Below are positions 6,325 through 14,947 of a DNA stretch of 64,000 nucleotides, piece by piece. The DNA comes from Dactylonectria macrodidyma (taxonomy: Eukaryota; Ascomycota; Sordariomycetes; Hypocreales; Nectriaceae). Position numbers and translations under genes: made by a program. Where the stretch lies: the NCBI GenBank assembly GCA_020744425.1, contig JAGMUV010000001.1, positions 5,580,001 through 5,644,000 on the forward strand, given 5' to 3'. Position 1 is the first letter of the stretch, and the number at the start of each line of letters is the position of its first letter. Under the pieces are notes generated by a model, which was not told the DNA's origin, ran no database searches, and saw nothing but the letters and a program-made list of their open reading frames with translations.

Positions 6325-9300
6325 CTAACCGCGTGCGTTAAAGAGGAACTTGAGTTCATTAGTGCTGAGCCGTCCAATCTTCATGCTCTCAGCTTCGTCC
6401 AAAGCGGCCTCCACTATCGACTTCTTCTTCTCCTGCAATGCAACAATCCGATCTTCGACCGTGTCCTTGGTGAGGATACGATACACCTTGACTTCCTTCT
6501 GCTGACCGATACGATAAGCGCGATCAACAGCCTGCATCTCAATATATGGGTTCCAGAAAGGATCCATGATGATGACTCGAGAAGCGGCTGTCAAGTTGAG
6601 TCCCGCGTTACCTGCCCGGAGAGAAACCAGCATCACCTTAACATCCTTGCGATCTCGGAACTGGTGAGCCGCGACGTTACGATTCGTAGCCGACATGCTG
6701 CCATCATACCTGACAGGCTTCTCCATCTTTTCGTGCCACATTGCCACCTCGAGGAGATCGAGCAACAGGGTCCACTGAGAGAAGATGATCGTTTTTTCTC
6801 CCGTTTCGGAAATCTGCTTCAGGAGCTGCATGCATTCAGTGACTTTTGCGGCAGGCATCCATGTCTTGCGCAAGTATCGCATGTACTTTTTGAACGCATC
6901 CCGATTCTTGTAGGCCTCCTTGCGGAGGGTTTTGAGCATAGAAGGCTTGATATCCGGTACCTTCTTCTTCCCCTTGCTCTTCTTCTTTTTCTTTTTGCCT
7001 TTATCCAGTAGTTTCTTGTGTGAGGTTTCGTCATCAAAACTGTCTTCGTCCGCCACAATGAACCCTTTCAGATTGCCTTGCTTGTCAACTTCGTCATCAG
7101 ATCTGTATGCGTCAGAGTCTGACTCGTCGTCATCGTCATCGTCATCGTCATCATCATCATCCGATTCCTCTTTGCCAACCTCTCCATTTTCGATGCGCTC
7201 CGGCATATGAATTTTCTGAAAGGTTTCATATGTGAAGCATTTGCTCGGATCGAATTGCCCACGGCAGACAGGGCACTTAGCCTTGCCGCCTTCGTTTCCC
7301 TCTTGCAAATTGAGCAAAGTAGCGTTTTCAGTCAGACGGCAGAGGCATTCGCCGCAGCTATCATGGCCGCATGGAATAAAGAAAGTAGGACATTGGACGG
7401 CGTCGTAGCAGATGGGACATTCGAAGGCCTCGATACCCTTGATTCTCTCCACAATTGCTGTGTCCAACGCCTTGACCAAATCCAGCTTTTCTTCATCAGA
7501 AACGTGGGCAACATCGTCAACATCCAGGTTGAGATGCGGGTGGCAGCATGCCTGTCGTAGTCGAAGCAGAAGAACTAGGATACTGGAGTAATTCTTGCCT
7601 ACACTCCCGTCTCGGAGGTACTTGTTAAACTGCACTTGAGACTTCTTCTCCAGTTGATTGTAAAAGTCGTGTTCGTCGGGGGAGAACTCGGCATAAACCA
7701 CCTCCTCTATCTTCTCGGGAAGTTTGAGAATTGGCTTGCCATCTAATTGTGAATTCTTCTTGCGTCGAAGCATGATAGCTTTGAGCAGAGCTCGCAGTCT
7801 GGACATGGCCACACTCTTTGGGTCGCCATTGCGGCCAAATAAGACACCAAATGACTAAGAAAATAAGCTTGATGCAAGTGAGACGTTGAACTTTGTAACA
7901 TACCTGACGGAACTGTTCCCATGTACTGTAGGGCTTGATCTGAAGAAAGTTGAGCAAGGAGTAGAGTTCTAGAACGCCATTCATCATTGGAGTTCCGGTC
8001 AAGCACCATCGATATGTTGCCCTCAACTTGGTGCATGCCTTTGAAGTCTTCGTATCCTTGTTCTTGATGCATTGTGCCTCATCGAGAACGACACGATAGA
8101 ACTTTGCCTTGGTCGGGTGGAGAAGGGGACACTTAACAGCAAAACTCTTGTCGTTAAAATCGATATTGCGGTCTTTATTGTCTTCGAGGTGCTTCTCGAG
8201 CCGCTTTAACTCTTGAGCGATGGTGCCGTACGTTGTCAAAACAACATCATACTTGAGTAGATCTTCCGTCGTTGCCTTCTTATTATGGTACAAGAAAACC
8301 GATAGCCTGTGGGACAGCTTTGTCTTCGTGGCGAGTTCTTCCTCCCACTGCCGAATGAGAGCAACTGGGCCCACGATCAAGTTCGTCTGCAAAGGTTAGC
8401 GTGGCAAGAACATGAGGCGGTGGTTTGAGACTTACCTTTGGGCGGCCGGCTGATGGGCGGGAAATAAGTAGTGCAAGCGTGGATATAGTCTTCCCAAGAC
8501 CCATGTCATCGGCAAGGATACCTCCCTTGTTCGTACCTTCTTCCATCTTCTTCATCCAGGTGAGGGCTAGTTCCTGATGGGGGTACAGTGGCCTCTTGAG
8601 TCCAGCTGGTGTCCCGTCCCTATTTCGCTCTGGAATGTCCATGTCAGGGCGAATGTTTTGTAAGAGATTATCCAAATCCTTCTCGGTCATTCTAGGATCG
8701 TGGTAAGCATCTTGGATAAAATTGGTCAAATGCTCGGGGAGAGCATTGCCAGCTCCATCCATGCCGAGTGTGTAGTCAAATGCGTTCGTTCTGTCGATAA
8801 TATCGGACAAGCTTGACATGCCATGGCCAGGGAGAACTGGAGGCATTAGACGAGAGCGGGGTAATCCAAACACTGACAGTCCTGGTGCAGGTTGGCCACC
8901 CAAAGTTTGGAAGCCTGGCATAGGAGTCGGGCCCCTGCTCGGACCTGGGACCTGGCCTGGTATCAAAACCCCATTAGGCAATGGCATTCCAGGTCGATAG
9001 TATGGGGGATTAACAGTCGCATCCCCAAAGTTGCTGACTGTCGGTCCTACCTGAGCCCTTGCAACTTGCCCATAGCCCCTAGGTATGGGGTTCGTCGCTG
9101 GTATCTGGGTGTTCGTGTGAAGAGGAATCGTGGCATCCCAACTGGGATCATAGCCTCCGGGCATTTGGTTTGTTGGTGGTTCTGGCAATGGTATTGGGTT
9201 AAGAACGGAGGCTCCAAAGGATGAATCCGATTCTCCATCAGTGAAGTCAAAGTCAACATTGCCGGTTGGCTGACTGTTCATCATTCGAGTGAAAGCATTC

Positions 9301-10626
9301 GTCTCAGTTGGGTGGACGACGGAAGGACCTGACACTGGAGATTCCTGACTGGAGAGAAGTCGAGCCAAGTCGAGGTCATCCCTCTCCTGCTTGCGCTCCT
9401 TCTCGGCCTTGATTTGCTGGGCAATGTAGAGGGAGCTGAGATCATCATCGTCCCTAGGACTCGAGAGTCAATGCACAGCTCAACGTTAGGTGTTGGAGGC
9501 GACTATGGCGGTAGACAAGGTCTGAAAAGTAAGATAGAGAACATACCCAGTAAGGTCGATGACATCAACTTGACTTCCGTTGAGATTGTCGATAGGTGAT
9601 GAATGGAAGAAGGGATTGCCAGCTGCGACAGGGGTTGTCCGTCGAGACTTGTTAGGTCCGATGGGGGCAAAGAGGCTAGCTGATTCAGAGTCCCGCTTGC
9701 GACTAGGCATAGAATGCGATCCTAAGTCATTCCATGCGTTATTACTCCTAAGAGGCGTCGACATGGCCACTGGGAGTTCCAGAGGGTCGATAACTTGTGG
9801 GAATAGGTCAGTGGGAAGACCTGAGGTTATGGAAAGAAAGTGGTCGTATGAGAGGGGCAGTTCAGGGAACTCAGCCATTTGCTGGAAGATGTAATCATTT
9901 TCGTAGGAGAACGACATCAAGCACGAGGGAGAGAGTTCTTAGGGGGTGGTGAATACGAGGAGGCAAATGCCAGGTGAATGTGGGAACGACAGTGACAGGA
10001 GCAGGCTGAGGGTTCAAGTAGTTGGATGAGCAAACAAGGGGAGTATGGGGATGGAGGCCTTTTTGATAGCGGCCCAAGGGTGAATGAAAAACGCACGAGC
10101 ACGGGCGAAAGTCAGAAATGTGATGAGAGAGGTGAGTTGAAAGAAGCAAGCTGAAGAGGGTCATGTGCGACAAACGCAGATCGAAGTGGGAGGAAACAAT
10201 GTGGGCAATAGCGATGAGGGAGGCGCAGAATCACCAAGCCACAGGACAGACTAAATGAAACACAAACGGCTCATACCTTGGGATGGTCCGGCAGGCGTTT
10301 GGTCGGCGAGAGGCCGTTGGGGGGTCGCAGCAGGGAGTGTCGGCTCTATCAGTCCGGTGAGCTTGAGCCCATCAGAGTTGGATGCATCCCGTCTTGGAGT
10401 AGGTACATGTAGCATTGGGGAACCGGGAAGCCTTACCATTGACATCAGCATCAGCATCAGCATCAGCCTCACCCCGCCTAGCAGTGCGCAGAAGCTTCTT
10501 TAAGCGATCAATCTCGTGGCCAATCTCGACACGCTCCTCTTCGACGCCCTCGAATGTCTCAAATTCAAGCGAATCGAGGATGACCTTTTGAATGGTCAGT
10601 TCCTCCGTCAACGCCGTCACGTCCAT
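6325..10626 (-). CDS. SNF2-family ATPase with RING finger (Uls1/Ris1-like)
   Basis: Six exons on the minus strand: 10626-10437, 10345-10277, 9937-9547, 9453-8436, 8386-7904, 7854-6325; total 1226 residues. Role by family: DNA translocase with an embedded RING E3 domain, like yeast Uls1/Ris1 (SUMO-targeted, chromatin and replication stress) and Rad5/Rad16. Seen: a charged helical N-terminus (ALTEELTIQKVILDSLE), a long disordered Pro/Gly-rich region, helicase Walker A DDMGLGKT at about 532-539, the DEAQ box at about 658-661, a C3HC4 RING from CPIC to CPVC at about 863-914, a run of Asp residues, then the C-terminal helicase lobe with QAVDRAYRIGQ. The four 3' exons are certain. The two 5' exons rest on phase-perfect joining and resemblance to other fungal N-termini; a shorter form from ATG 9917 (1133 residues) is the alternative. 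The intron 10276-9938 is long (339 nt). Confidence 0.85.
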
Positions 10627-11880: not shown

Positions 11881-14317
11881 TCAGTCCGAGTCAGAACCCG
11901 TGATCTTGTGCCATGCCTTGTCCACCTGCTCTGTCAGCCAATCCCACCAGCCCTCGTCTTTGTCGTCGTCCTCGTCGTCGCTGTCCTCCTCATCATCCGT
12001 GTCGCCATTACCGCTAGAACCGTCGTTACCAGACGTCGGTTTGACTGACTTGGTGGGTTTCGCCGACTTGGTAGGCTCTGCCGACTGGGTAGGTTCTGTC
12101 GGCTTGGTAGGTTCTGCTTGCCCCGTTGGCTTCTCTGGCTCCTCTGGCTCCTCTGGCTTCTCCGGTGCAGTTGGGCGAGCTGGCTGCGACGGTGGGACGG
12201 GCAACGTCGGTCGTGCTGGTTGTGTCGGCTTCACATGGACCCCCGGTTGCTTCGTCGACTCATTTGGTACGCCTGAAGTCTCGGGATCTGCCGGTTCATC
12301 GGGGGACTCCTCTGGGTCATGGAGGCCCACGGGCACGAGTGGCAACCGCAGAGTTCCGTTGTTTGGGTGTGGCTCGATACCCAGTGAGTCGCACAGCATG
12401 TTGTACACTTCGATGTTTTCTGTGTAGTGTTAGTCAACTGATCATCGGCGCTCTTGCGGCGGCTTTAGACTTACGGAACACTTCGATTTGACTGTTTGCC
12501 GGGTGAGGGAACGCAGGACCGCGAGCAATGAAAATAGCCCGCATCAAGGGATGCTCATTGTCGTACCCATGCAATCCACGGGGATGGTACACTAAATTCT
12601 TCTCAAGCCCTTCCTTGACGTTGAACTCTTCTTCGGTGACAATTGCCCATCCTGTCTGCGGCACAATCCACAAGGGTGCAATACGCTTGTCTTTGGTGAA
12701 GTGATACCGCTCAGGCATGTTGACGTCGCGAAGATATACCTCAAAGTGGGAATTCGTCTTTGACTGCTCCACAAGCTCGTCATAGAGGCCTTGCAAGTCC
12801 TCAGGGTTCCTGGGGCGGAGGCCATACAATGGCCAGCCGTCAATGTGCTCAATCTTGCTTGTGTCAATGAGATCCTCGAGCTGGATCAACCTTGTAATGT
12901 CCGTTGTTGCCATGCCGTGGTCGGAAACAACGATGACATTGACGATGTCGGTCAGGTTGCGTTCCTCTAGGCCCATGAAGATCTGGTCCATCATCGTGTC
13001 CACCATAGTAATGGTGGAGCGGATTTCGGTGCTATTGGGACCATACTTGTGTCCGTCGGAATCAACATGGGGAACATAAGCGGCAATCAACTGGGGACGC
13101 GTATCCTTGAAGTCAGCCGTCTTGTCCTCCAGACCCGGCATATCTAGGAACTCGAGGATTCTAGCGACCTTGCCATCGAGCGAATCCTCCCGATCGAACT
13201 TGTCCATGATGCTCGGCTCCGTATGCAAGACGTGCGCCTCGCTTCCAGGCCACATGTGAATAGCACTGCGAACTCCCTGCTCCTCAGCCGTCACCCAGAA
13301 GGGCTCTCCGCCCCACCACTTGGGGTCGAGACTTCGCGCAGGGTCGGTGTAATAGAACTCCTCTCCAAGCTCAGGGTCCCAGAAGGTGTTTGAAACGATG
13401 CCGTGACTTTCAGGATACAGACCAGTCGCAAGCGTGTAGTGATTTGGAAAGGTCACGGATGGAAACGAGGGGTGCATCCACTTTGGCGAGACGCCCTCCT
13501 TGACGAAAGCGCTGAGCCTGGGGGTGAGGCCGCGCTGTAGAAAGTCGGCGCGGAAGCCGTCCAAGCTGATGATGATGGTGGTGGGTCCAAAGAGCGCAGT
13601 GCCATTGCTTACCATCGCCTGTACCTTTGGCTGCACCCTCTTGCGGTTGTTCGAAAGCTTCCATGCGATCAGGATCAGGATCGCAAAACCGATGGCGATG
13701 AGGGTATGGATAAACACCCACCGGCGCCAGCTCCGTCTTCGCTGGGCCTTTGCATCGGCTATCATGTTGAGTTTCAGTCGGTCCATTTCGTCGCTGTCAT
13801 CCCTCTCGCTGCTCTCCCCGGTCGAACTGCCCTCTTTCATGCCTCCCTCTTCCATTTCGTACATCAGCTCTCCGTCTTCGCCATGATGCGCATGTTCCAG
13901 CAATCGCTCCTTCTTCTTCTGTCTCCTCGTGCGCCTAGCGGCCCTCTTTTCCGTTACCAAGTCTTCAGTCGAACTGTTGGGATCCAGGCCTCGAGAAGAG
14001 CCTGGGCGGCGCCCGAACATCTTCAACGGGTTCGGAACGGCCAGTCCAGATCCCCGACGCTCTCGTTCCTGTCTCTTTCGACTATCGGTGATCAGCTTGT
14101 CCGTCTCCTCCTCCTCCATCAACACAATGCGATCGTGGGCGCGAAGCTCGCGGCTATTTCTTGCGCGAGAGAGAAGCTGGTCATCGTCGCTGTCGGTGTC
14201 TTGGTCGCTTCGAGAGTGGATGGACGAGGCATCGTCGTCGTATCCCATAGGGGATAGGAGGGAGGCGTTGTCTCGGCCCCCGCTTGGGGAATTCGTGTCA
14301 AGATTATGCAAAGGCAT
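11881..14317 (-). CDS. Type II membrane nucleotide pyrophosphatase/phosphodiesterase (NPP family)
   Basis: Two exons (14317-12475, 12419-11881), 793 residues. Family role: alkaline-phosphatase-superfamily ectoenzyme hydrolysing nucleotide pyrophosphate or phosphodiester bonds, with two metal ions. Seen: a long acidic and Arg/Lys-rich cytosolic N-terminus (about 1-199), one membrane span (about 200-220, HTLIAIGFAILILIAW), then the catalytic domain with IISLDGFRAD (metal ligand), the nucleophile Thr in PSVTFPNHYT (about residue 289), and the metal-binding HVDSDGHKYG and VVSDHGM motifs. The C-terminus after about 650 is low complexity, with Pro-Thr-Lys and Pro-Glu-Lys repeats and an acidic end. 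The start is the ATG at 14317; upstream in-frame TTG is rejected. A yeast Npp1/Npp2-like role in extracellular nucleotide or phosphate scavenging is inferred. Confidence 0.9.
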
Positions 14318-14805
14318 TTTCAAAACTCCTCGCAAGGCCTCTTAGACGCTTGGAATGGCACGCATCTAAACACGCGATCGCAGGAAAGGGGATAATTAGA
14401 ATTTAGAGTCGCGACATGGAACTCGATAAGCTCGAACTGATACGACGAGACCGGGGTAAATATCCACCGGCCTCCGGTGATGCCGTCTGACACATGGCCA
14501 TGTTCTAAAAATAGGACGACAGACTCGGGGGCACCTTTTGCATCGCTGGGCATGCAGGCGAACTTTTCAATCGAGTTACCTCATACGAGACGGAGGAATC
14601 CACGCAAAATCCTTTGTTTGAGATTGAAGATATTACATGTTGCTACAAGTGGATGCATTTCCGGCGTTTAAAGTTAACATCACACCACCAAAGATGATCC
14701 ACATCCTGGGAAGAGAGCAGGATGGAATGTTGGACTAAGACATGCCACCCCTGCTGCAGCCCATCAAGGTCAAACCAAGGCAACTGACAAAAGGGTGGAA
14801 AGGGC

Positions 14806-14810
14806 AAAAA
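14806..14810 (-). terminator. RNA polymerase III terminator of the tRNA-Phe gene
   Basis: On the minus strand a run of five T begins 10 nt after the last base of the tRNA (14821). This is the usual pol III stop signal and supports real transcription of the split tRNA gene. Confidence 0.6.
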
Positions 14811-14820
14811 GATATGTCTT

Positions 14821-14947
14821 TGCGGTTTATGTGGATCGAACACATGACCTTCAGATCTTCAGTCTGACGCTCTCTGCCAGTGAAGGTTAGTGATTTGCTT
14901 GAGTGAGGGATTAATGTGTTAACATACCCCAACTGAGCTAAACCCGC
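14821..14947 (-). tRNA. tRNA-Phe(GAA): tRNA-Phe (GAA) with a D-loop intron
   Basis: Read on the minus strand, segments 14947-14928 and 14873-14821 join into a 73-nt tRNA. The acceptor stem is GCGGGTT against AAACCGC (six pairs, one G-A mismatch at pair 5-68). The D stem is GCTC/GAGC around loop AGTTGGGA, the anticodon stem TCAGA/TCTGA is perfect with loop CTGAAGA (anticodon GAA, Phe), the variable loop is AGGTC, and the T stem ATGTG/CACAT encloses TTCGATC. The A box (TAGCTCAGTTGG) and B box (GTTCGATCC) are intact. The gene is interrupted inside the D-loop by 54 nt (separate entry), while the usual 37/38 intron site in the anticodon loop is uninterrupted. A T5 terminator follows. All arms are intact, so this is not an obvious pseudogene; whether it yields functional tRNA depends on removal of the insert. 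Confidence 0.85.
14874..14927 (-). other. 54-nt GT-AG intron-like insert in the tRNA D-loop
   Basis: The insert starts GTATGT, contains TCACTAACC (a textbook fungal branch site) about 10 nt before its end, and ends GGCAG. These are all the signals of a fungal spliceosomal intron, and the length is typical. Removal between 14928 and 14873 restores the D arm GCTC-AGTTGGGA-GAGC exactly. It is not at the 37/38 position used by tRNA splicing endonuclease and shows no obvious bulge-helix-bulge. Seen: motifs and exact restoration. Inferred: that the spliceosome removes it. Confidence 0.75.

What the first reader, a model, noticed from the sequence alone, without database searches (positions are those of the whole stretch)
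14821..14947. tRNA-Phe gene split in the D-loop by a canonical spliceosomal-type intron
Seen: an otherwise complete tRNA-Phe(GAA) is interrupted between bases 14928 and 14873 by 54 nt that begin GTATGT, carry CACTAAC near the end and finish GCAG. Excision restores D stem and loop exactly to a 73-nt tRNA; A and B boxes and a T5 pol III terminator are present. Known: nuclear tRNA introns are normally at 37/38, recognised by tRNA splicing endonuclease, and tRNA genes are transcribed by pol III, while spliceosomal introns belong to pol II transcripts, with rare cases reported in pol III RNAs such as U6. Inference: either the spliceosome processes a pol III tRNA precursor, or the gene is read by pol II, or it is a recently disabled copy. 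A spliceosome-dependent tRNA would be a new processing route.
Basis: partly seen in the sequence, partly recalled or inferred. Interest (0 to 1): 0.92.

Follow-up and report, generated by a model that had tools for sequence, protein, structure and literature searches.

The report
Spliceosomal intron in every tRNA-Phe gene
In this fungus every gene found for the transfer RNA that carries phenylalanine is cut by a short insert with the marks of a messenger-RNA intron, so the cell likely needs its mRNA-splicing machine to make this tRNA, which would be a new route of tRNA processing.

Summary
The window is from the fungus Dactylonectria macrodidyma (Hypocreales). Its tRNA-Phe(GAA) gene (14947..14821, minus) has a 54-nt insert at position 20/21. 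The genome gave seven tRNA-Phe loci; 7 of 7 carry a 53-55-nt insert at that site and no uninterrupted copy was found. The 73 exon bases are identical in all seven. Among six distinct inserts the splice-signal columns (GTANGT, CTAAC, CAG) agree 13/13 in 15 of 15 pairs, while the rest of the C11 insert is no more like the others than chance. This fits selection for splicing and for a working tRNA, not a disabled copy. A neighbouring protein-gene intron has the same layout. A T5-T10 run, as at pol III gene ends, starts 6-11 bases after 7 of 7 copies. Both U6 genes found carry two such introns each. Domains of the usual tRNA-splicing endonuclease are present. Removal by the spliceosome is inferred; there were no RNA data. 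Other tRNA kinds and other fungi remain largely untested. Ten literature searches showed no spliceosomal intron in a tRNA.

The parts
14928..14947 (-). exon 1 of tRNA-Phe(GAA), mature positions 1-20
   Evidence: identical in 7 of 7 loci
14874..14927 (-). 54-nt spliceosomal-type intron at position 20/21 (D-loop)
14922..14927 (-). predicted 5' splice site GTATGT
   Evidence: GTANGT in 6 of 6 distinct inserts
14886..14890 (-). predicted branch site CTAAC (branch A at 14887, 13 nt before the end of the insert)
   Evidence: CTAAC in 6 of 6 distinct inserts
14874..14876 (-). predicted 3' splice site CAG
   Evidence: 6 of 6 distinct inserts
14821..14873 (-). exon 2 of tRNA-Phe(GAA), mature positions 21-73
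   Evidence: identical in 7 of 7 loci
14858..14860 (-). anticodon GAA
   Evidence: read
14928..14940 (-). box A region TAGCTCAGTTGGG (pol III promoter), intact upstream of the intron
   Evidence: read; box positions as in PMC3978253 (passages), consensus recalled
14832..14842 (-). box B region TGTTCGATCCA (pol III promoter)
   Evidence: read; box positions as in PMC3978253 (passages), consensus recalled
14806..14810 (-). T5 run, predicted pol III terminator, starting 11 bases after the tRNA 3' end
   Evidence: T5-T10 starting at +6 to +11 in 7 of 7 loci
12420..12474 (-). comparison: 55-nt intron of the neighbouring alkaline-phosphatase-like (phosphodiesterase) gene, GTAAGT...CTAAC...CAG
   Evidence: with protein P0001

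Best explanation
All seven tRNA-Phe(GAA) genes found in this fungal genome are interrupted at position 20/21 in the D-loop by a 53-55-nt insert with GTANGT at its start, CTAAC near its end and CAG at its end, which the spliceosome likely removes from a transcript predicted to be made by RNA polymerase III. Shown by sequence: the gene layout, its presence in 7 of 7 loci, identical exons, diverged inserts that keep the splice signals, a T-run after each gene, and the same type of intron twice in each of the two U6 genes found. Inferred: pol III transcribes through box A, intron and box B and stops at the T-run; the spliceosome cuts at GT, forms a lariat at the CTAAC adenosine and joins the exons at CAG; only then can the D arm fold and the tRNA be finished. 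As no uninterrupted tRNA-Phe gene was found, decoding of phenylalanine codons in the cytosol would depend on this step. The intron may have entered by reverse splicing into a tRNA-Phe transcript and spread to all copies, as has been proposed for the origin of the fission yeast U6 intron (passage of PMC10484740).
For: Spliced 73-nt query: 7 loci match exon 2 at 100%, none is contiguous across the junction. Exons 73/73 in 15 of 15 pairs of the 6 distinct copies; signal columns 13/13 in 15 of 15; other insert columns of the C11 copy 12/40, 12/41, 11/41, 11/39 and 16/41 against the other five. Insert length and signals agree with a protein-gene intron next door (55 nt, GTAAGT, CTAAC, CAG) and with two inferred SNF2 introns of 49 nt, one with CTAAC, one without, and with published Fusarium introns (median 57 nt, CTRAY in 91%, YAG|R in 94%; PMC5677156, passages). 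T5-T10 starting at +6 to +11 in 7 of 7 (T5 occurs in 1.0% of 20-nt stretches of the window). Two U6 genes have two introns each of 51-54 nt with GTGAGT or GTAAGG, CTAAC and CAG; no uninterrupted U6 was found. Flanks of the dispersed loci share no blastn similarity apart from the C45 tandem array.
Against: No RNA data: neither the spliced product nor the polymerase is shown. Pol III transcripts have no cap and are rarely spliced (recalled). Six of the seven loci also share about 18 nt at the 3' end of the insert that can pair with the anticodon arm, more than spliceosomal signals require. A half bulge-helix-bulge pairing is possible in all six distinct inserts. No other fungal genome could be examined. 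The assembly may be incomplete. The best plain energy fold of the joined tRNA is not the cloverleaf.
Confidence: 0.85

Rival explanations
1. The insert is an ectopic tRNA intron removed by the tRNA splicing endonuclease through a bulge-helix-bulge-like structure, as in some archaea and the red alga Cyanidioschyzon merolae.
For: 20/21 is a listed site of archaeal introns (PMC4090602, passages); in C. merolae a permuted tRNA gene is joined at 20/21 and other introns lie in the D-loop (PMC3978253, passages). Exon bases 15-18 could pair with insert bases -6..-3: 4 of 4 pairs in five inserts (2 or 3 of them G-U) and 3 of 4 in C11; shuffled inserts reach 4 pairs in 1346 of 12000 cases.
Against: With CAG kept, shuffled inserts reach 3 or 4 pairs in 5742 of 12000 cases, and five of the six inserts share this stretch, so the pairing is weak evidence; the second helix is missing (1 of 5 or 2 of 5 pairs). 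GTANGT and CTAAC have no known role in this route, yet they stay constant while the rest drifts. The genome has a Sen54-type domain (name recalled); an enzyme with such accessory parts is judged unlikely to act on pre-tRNAs disrupted elsewhere than 37/38 (PMC3978253, passages).
Confidence: 0.07
2. The genes are read by RNA polymerase II as parts of longer capped transcripts, and the tRNA is released after ordinary pre-mRNA splicing.
For: The window copy ends 503 bp upstream of the start codon of the phosphodiesterase gene (14317), on the same strand.
Against: T5-T10 runs closely follow 7 of 7 copies; boxes A and B are intact by eye; three copies form a tandem array with 217-bp spacing; flanks of the dispersed copies share nothing.
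Confidence: 0.05
3. The seven loci are pseudogenes or a tRNA-derived repeat, and a working uninterrupted tRNA-Phe lies outside the assembly.
For: A review notes that D- or T-arm insertions in eukaryotic tRNA genes are mostly found in one of many synonymous genes and taken for pseudogenes (PMC4090602, passages). The assembly could lack a copy.
Against: Exons are 73/73 identical across diverged loci, and 7 of 7 are interrupted. The query was sensitive enough to find a tRNA-Cys at 86% and 16-17-nt exon-1 pieces.
Confidence: 0.02
4. The insert splices itself or is processed by another, unknown route.
For: None found.
Against: 53-55 nt is far too short for group I or II introns (recalled); the inserts have little structure of their own (-0.4 to -4.5 kcal/mol).
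Confidence: 0.01

Closest known systems
mRNA-type introns in U6 snRNA genes of fungi (fission yeast; also the two U6 genes found in this genome)
   Same: GT...AG introns with a branch site in a small structured RNA made by pol III; near the working core of the RNA
   Different: U6 is itself a spliceosome part; here the host is a tRNA, an RNA outside splicing
Canonical nuclear tRNA introns at 37/38
   Same: Interrupt a tRNA gene and must be removed
   Different: Other site (20/21), other signals; not expected to be cut by the four-part endonuclease
Ectopic tRNA introns of Cyanidioschyzon merolae, cryptophyte nucleomorphs and some archaea
   Same: Introns in the D arm; 20/21 is a listed archaeal site
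   Different: Those of C. merolae and archaea rest on bulge-helix-bulge motifs (many nucleomorph ones have no defined motif); this insert lacks the full motif and has spliceosomal signals
U3 snoRNA introns of fungi
   Same: Spliceosomal introns in a small structured RNA
   Different: A snoRNA; direct evidence of splicing reported for S. cerevisiae and N. crassa (PMC5832005, passages); not a tRNA
Messenger-RNA-type introns in nuclear 18S rDNA of ascomycetes (recalled; one title seen in the reference list of PMC11782384)
   Same: Spliceosomal-type introns outside pol II genes
   Different: Pol I transcript and ribosomal RNA, not a pol III tRNA
Neurospora crassa tRNA-Phe (recalled, Selker and Yanofsky 1980; not looked up)
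   Same: tRNA-Phe of the same class of fungi, with nearly the same body as I recall it
   Different: Recalled to have a short intron near the anticodon and none in the D-loop

Membership tests
U2-type spliceosomal intron | 5' splice site GTRNGT-like | tested here: met
   GTATGT, GTACGT or GTAAGT in 6 of 6 distinct inserts
U2-type spliceosomal intron | branch site CTRAY at usual distance | tested here: met
   CTAAC, branch A 12-13 nt before the insert end, 6 of 6
U2-type spliceosomal intron | 3' splice site YAG | tested here: met
   CAG in 6 of 6
U2-type spliceosomal intron | length in the organism's usual range | tested here: met
   53-55 nt; three inferred protein introns of the window 49, 49 and 55 nt
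U2-type spliceosomal intron | removal by the spliceosome with a lariat | not testable with these tools
   no RNA data
Functional nuclear tRNA-Phe gene | mature sequence under constraint | tested here: met
   73/73 identity in 15 of 15 pairs; 7 of 7 loci
Functional nuclear tRNA-Phe gene | cloverleaf fold | tested here: inconclusive
   stems read by eye with one mismatch, G5/A68, in all copies; the best plain energy fold was not the cloverleaf
Pol III gene | box A, box B and T-run terminator | tested here: met
   boxes read by eye (consensus recalled); T5-T10 starting at +6 to +11 in 7 of 7
Pol III gene | occupancy by pol III | not testable with these tools
   no data
Canonical nuclear tRNA intron | insertion at 37/38 | tested here: not met
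   insertion at 20/21; anticodon loop CTGAAGA uninterrupted
Bulge-helix-bulge tRNA intron | full motif: helix, bulge, 4-bp helix, bulge, helix | tested here: not met
   the 4-bp helix is possible (4 of 4 pairs in five inserts, mostly with G-U, 3 of 4 in C11); the second helix is absent; a half motif is not excluded
Group I or II self-splicing intron | catalytic core of hundreds of nt (recalled) | tested here: not met
   53-55 nt; no Rfam match in the window at gathering score

The most novel reading that the evidence does not exclude
In this fungus the spliceosome is an obligatory tRNA-maturation enzyme: every cytosolic tRNA-Phe comes from a pol III precursor that the spliceosome must splice in the D-loop, so all protein synthesis hangs on splicing, while the spliceosome itself depends on U6 RNAs that each need two introns of their own removed.
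Probability: 0.78. Interest if true: 0.92.

Novelty: new variant of a known kind. Interest (0 to 1): 0.87.

Why it matters
Nuclear tRNA introns are held to be removed by the tRNA splicing endonuclease and a ligase, and spliceosomal introns to belong to pol II transcripts, with U6 and U3 (and, as recalled, some ascomycete rDNA) as noted exceptions. A tRNA family with no uninterrupted gene found and with spliceosomal introns would make the spliceosome a tRNA-processing machine, tie translation to splicing in one organism, and give a natural test of whether cap or pol II are needed for splicing. It also bears on how introns are gained (reverse splicing into abundant small RNAs). ARAGORN and Rfam missed the gene here, and tRNAscan-SE 2.0 describes its search for noncanonical introns for archaeal tRNAs (PMC8450103, passages), so other fungal genomes may hold overlooked cases.

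Tried and rejected
Disabled copy or repeat: rejected by seven loci with identical exons. Endonuclease route: tested with a bulge-helix-bulge pairing check and energy folds of the six distinct precursors; no full motif, half motif open. Introns in further pol III genes: 5S rRNA (47 scored of 3675 candidates; 47 of 47 match the full model 1-120) and SRP RNA (1 match over 1-293, 26 scored of 519 candidates) show none. RNase MRP was found as one 442-nt match to a 266-position model and not examined, so an insert there is not excluded. RNase P gave no match and no control rang, so this says nothing. The two U6 matches (43.2 and 41.4 bits) are just under the family cut-off of 44, because only the 3' exon fits the model; 7 of 14 prokaryote control genomes also gave matches under the cut-off. 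I take the two as U6 from the exon sequences; the third match (22.4 bits) I set aside as chance. Relatives: the exon-2 core pattern met 22 stretches in prokaryote genome contigs, 21 of them in archaeal records, 22 of 22 uninterrupted in the D-loop, and none in viral contigs; no fungal relative could be read. Whether other tRNA kinds carry such inserts is open: of 2246 candidates 63 were scored; 63 of 63 match the whole tRNA model; I fetched 53 of the 63, and ARAGORN reads a tRNA in every locus of them, with any intron it reports in the anticodon region. A first version of the intron-finding script printed nothing; the corrected one ran.

Literature: ten searches of open-licence papers; I saw the listings (in one search, 20 of 27 hits) and passages of eleven papers: PMC5832005, PMC6108506, PMC2441463, PMC3978253, PMC4494063, PMC5677156, PMC10484740, PMC4090602, PMC8450103, PMC3400036, PMC11782384; no paper was read whole. 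None showed a spliceosomal intron in a tRNA gene. One key paper on fungal U6 introns is not held.

Full report
What is there. On the minus strand, 14947..14821, lies a tRNA-Phe with anticodon GAA, cut after mature position 20 by 54 nt (14927..14874) that begin GTATGT, hold CACTAAC and end GGCAG; TTTTT follows at 14810..14806. ARAGORN and Rfam at gathering score do not report it; a relaxed Rfam search gives a local 25.9-bit tRNA match, under the cut-off of 29.

Whose genome. The long frame next door (12434..14341, minus) matches an alkaline-phosphatase-like protein of Dactylonectria macrodidyma at 100% over 97% of the frame; the contig of that protein is 7,196,004 bases long, the exact length of contig C1 in which the window lies. 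The species is in Nectriaceae, Hypocreales. The genome held has 77.3 million bases in 77 contigs.

All copies found are interrupted. A search with the interrupted gene found seven full-length loci, one each on C1, C10 and C11 and four on C45, plus a part match to a tRNA-Cys (named by ARAGORN). A search with the joined 73-nt tRNA found the same seven loci, each matching exon 2 at 100% and none continuing into exon 1. The same search picked up the tRNA-Cys at 86% and three single exon-1 pieces of 16-17 nt, so an uninterrupted tRNA-Phe in the assembly should have been seen; one outside the assembly would not. Three of the C45 copies form a tandem array spaced 217 bases apart.

Selection on exons and signals. 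Exons are identical in 7 of 7 loci. The inserts are 53-55 nt and of six kinds, two array copies being identical. In the 15 pairs of the six kinds, exons agree 73/73; the 13 signal columns (GTA, GT, CTAAC, CAG) agree 13/13; the other insert columns range from 40/41 (C1 with one C45 copy) down to 11/41. The five pairs with C11 give 12/40, 12/41, 11/41, 11/39 and 16/41; by my estimate from the base composition, chance gives about 0.28. Outside the gene the dispersed loci share no blastn similarity. So these are diverged copies in which the tRNA body and the splice signals were kept and the rest was free to change.

Likeness to the fungus's own introns. In the window the phosphodiesterase gene has a 55-nt intron, GTAAGT...TGACTAACACTACACAG; a SNF2-type gene has two of 49 nt, one GTAAGT...GCTAACCTTTGCAG, the other GTATGT...CTTATTTTCTTAG without CTAAC (the SNF2 introns rest on a protein that is only 87% identical). 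In four Fusarium species introns have a median of 57 nt, CTRAY branch sites in 91% and YAG|R ends in 94% (PMC5677156, passages).

Pol III features. Box A (14940..14928) and box B (14842..14832) lie on either side of the insert and are intact by eye (consensus recalled). A run of 5-10 T starts at +6 to +11 after the tRNA in 7 of 7 loci, against 1.0% of 20-nt stretches with T5 in the window.

A second pol III gene with the same trait. Rfam U6 matched only the 3' part of two loci, at 43.2 and 41.4 bits, just under its cut-off of 44. Reading upstream shows each U6 gene in three pieces...ACGATAC, AGAGAAGAT, TAGCATGGCC..., parted by introns of 52 and 54 nt (L070) or 51 and 53 nt (L071), each with GTGAGT or GTAAGG, CTAAC and CAG. 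A search with joined exons found only these two interrupted genes. The first intron falls inside the ACAGAGA box (name recalled). Some introns hold stretches like the tRNA B box, such as TTCGAACC and TCGATTCC (consensus recalled). [quoted passage not shown] So this genome's spliceosome should already handle pol III transcripts, if these U6 genes work.

The usual tRNA route is there too. A Sen54-type domain (PF12928, name Sen54 recalled) and two catalytic-type endonuclease domains (PF01974) are present. ARAGORN gives anticodon-region introns to several other tRNAs, such as Lys, Ile, Ala and Glu. Of 2246 tRNA candidates 63 were scored; 63 of 63 matched the whole model. I fetched 53 of the 63; ARAGORN reads a tRNA in each locus. 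tRNA kinds outside these were not tested.

Rivals. 20/21 is a listed site of archaeal introns (PMC4090602, passages), and in the red alga C. merolae a permuted tRNA is joined at 20/21 and introns occur in the D-loop (PMC3978253, passages); there the tRNA endonuclease cuts bulge-helix-bulge motifs. Here the central helix can be drawn with 4 of 4 pairs in five inserts, with 2-3 G-U pairs, and 3 of 4 in C11; shuffled inserts that keep CAG reach 4 pairs in 1346 and 3-4 pairs in 5742 of 12000 cases, and the second helix is missing. In the energy folds C1 and one C45 copy look alike and the others differ around the 5' junction. I put this route at 7%. Pol II reading is possible for the window copy, which lies upstream of a gene on the same strand, but not easily for an array with a T-run after each unit. 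Against my reading, six of seven loci share some 18 nt at the 3' end of the insert that can pair with the anticodon arm; the C11 copy does not. This may be shared descent, gene conversion from the exon, or a real structure; I cannot tell. The best plain energy fold of the joined tRNA is not the cloverleaf, and the acceptor stem has a G5/A68 mismatch in all copies; I recall the same 3' end in Neurospora tRNA-Phe, not checked.

What is known. A 2017 paper calls U3 and U6 the only small structured RNAs known to be often interrupted by an intron (PMC5832005, passages). A review says D- or T-arm insertions in eukaryotic tRNA genes are mostly in one of many synonymous genes and taken as pseudogenes, with algae and nucleomorphs as exceptions (PMC4090602, passages); here 7 of 7 loci carry the insert. 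Ten searches of an open-licence library showed no spliceosomal intron in a tRNA gene (listings, and passages of eleven papers); papers outside it, among them a survey of fungal U6 introns, could not be read.

Verdict. The most likely mechanism is spliceosomal removal of a D-loop intron from a pol III pre-tRNA-Phe. What works like it: the U6 introns. What it is a member of: by every sequence feature tested it is a U2-type spliceosomal intron; lariat splicing itself was not testable. It is a known kind of intron in a host for which I found no precedent, hence 'new variant of a known kind'.

Noticed in passing
L070 1388-1502 and L071 1390-1502 (G000:C34 near 3697181, G000:C56 near 1255336): Both U6 snRNA genes found carry two spliceosomal-type introns each (52+54 and 51+53 nt), the first inside the ACAGAGA box, with a 9-nt middle exon AGAGAAGAT; introns hold B-box-like stretches.
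   Followed up: yes
G000:C45:2457295-2457856: Tandem array of three tRNA-Phe genes spaced 217 bases apart; two have identical inserts, the third has nearly the insert of the window copy.
   Followed up: partly
window 14821-14947 and the six other tRNA-Phe loci: The acceptor stem has a G5/A68 mismatch in all seven copies.
   Followed up: no
inserts of L001-L006 (last 18 nt): Shared ACTAACCTTCACTGRCAG can pair with GTCAG and TGAAGG of the anticodon arm, enclosing the 3' splice site; the A/G difference in two loci keeps a G-U pair; the C11 copy lacks it.
   Followed up: partly
L093 6375-6500 (contig PBGD01000032.1): A contig filed under a Flavobacteriales bacterium holds a eukaryote-like uninterrupted tRNA-Phe with the same anticodon and T arms; possibly a misbinned contig.
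   Followed up: no
window 6325-9467, minus: SNF2-type helicase gene; the closest named protein is another D. macrodidyma protein at only 87% identity on a 531,289-base contig, though the next gene is 100% identical to its record: a paralogue or a missing gene model.
   Followed up: no
L050 (G000:C3:1365743-1365874): A 132-nt tRNA match with a long anticodon-region insert; ARAGORN calls it Arg(gcg) with a 39-nt intron, by eye it looks Ser-like with a longer one; no spliceosomal signals seen by eye.
   Followed up: partly
L103 (G000:C67:1073376-1073817): The RNase MRP RNA match spans 442 nt for a 266-position model; whether the extra length is an expansion loop or an intron was not looked at.
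   Followed up: no
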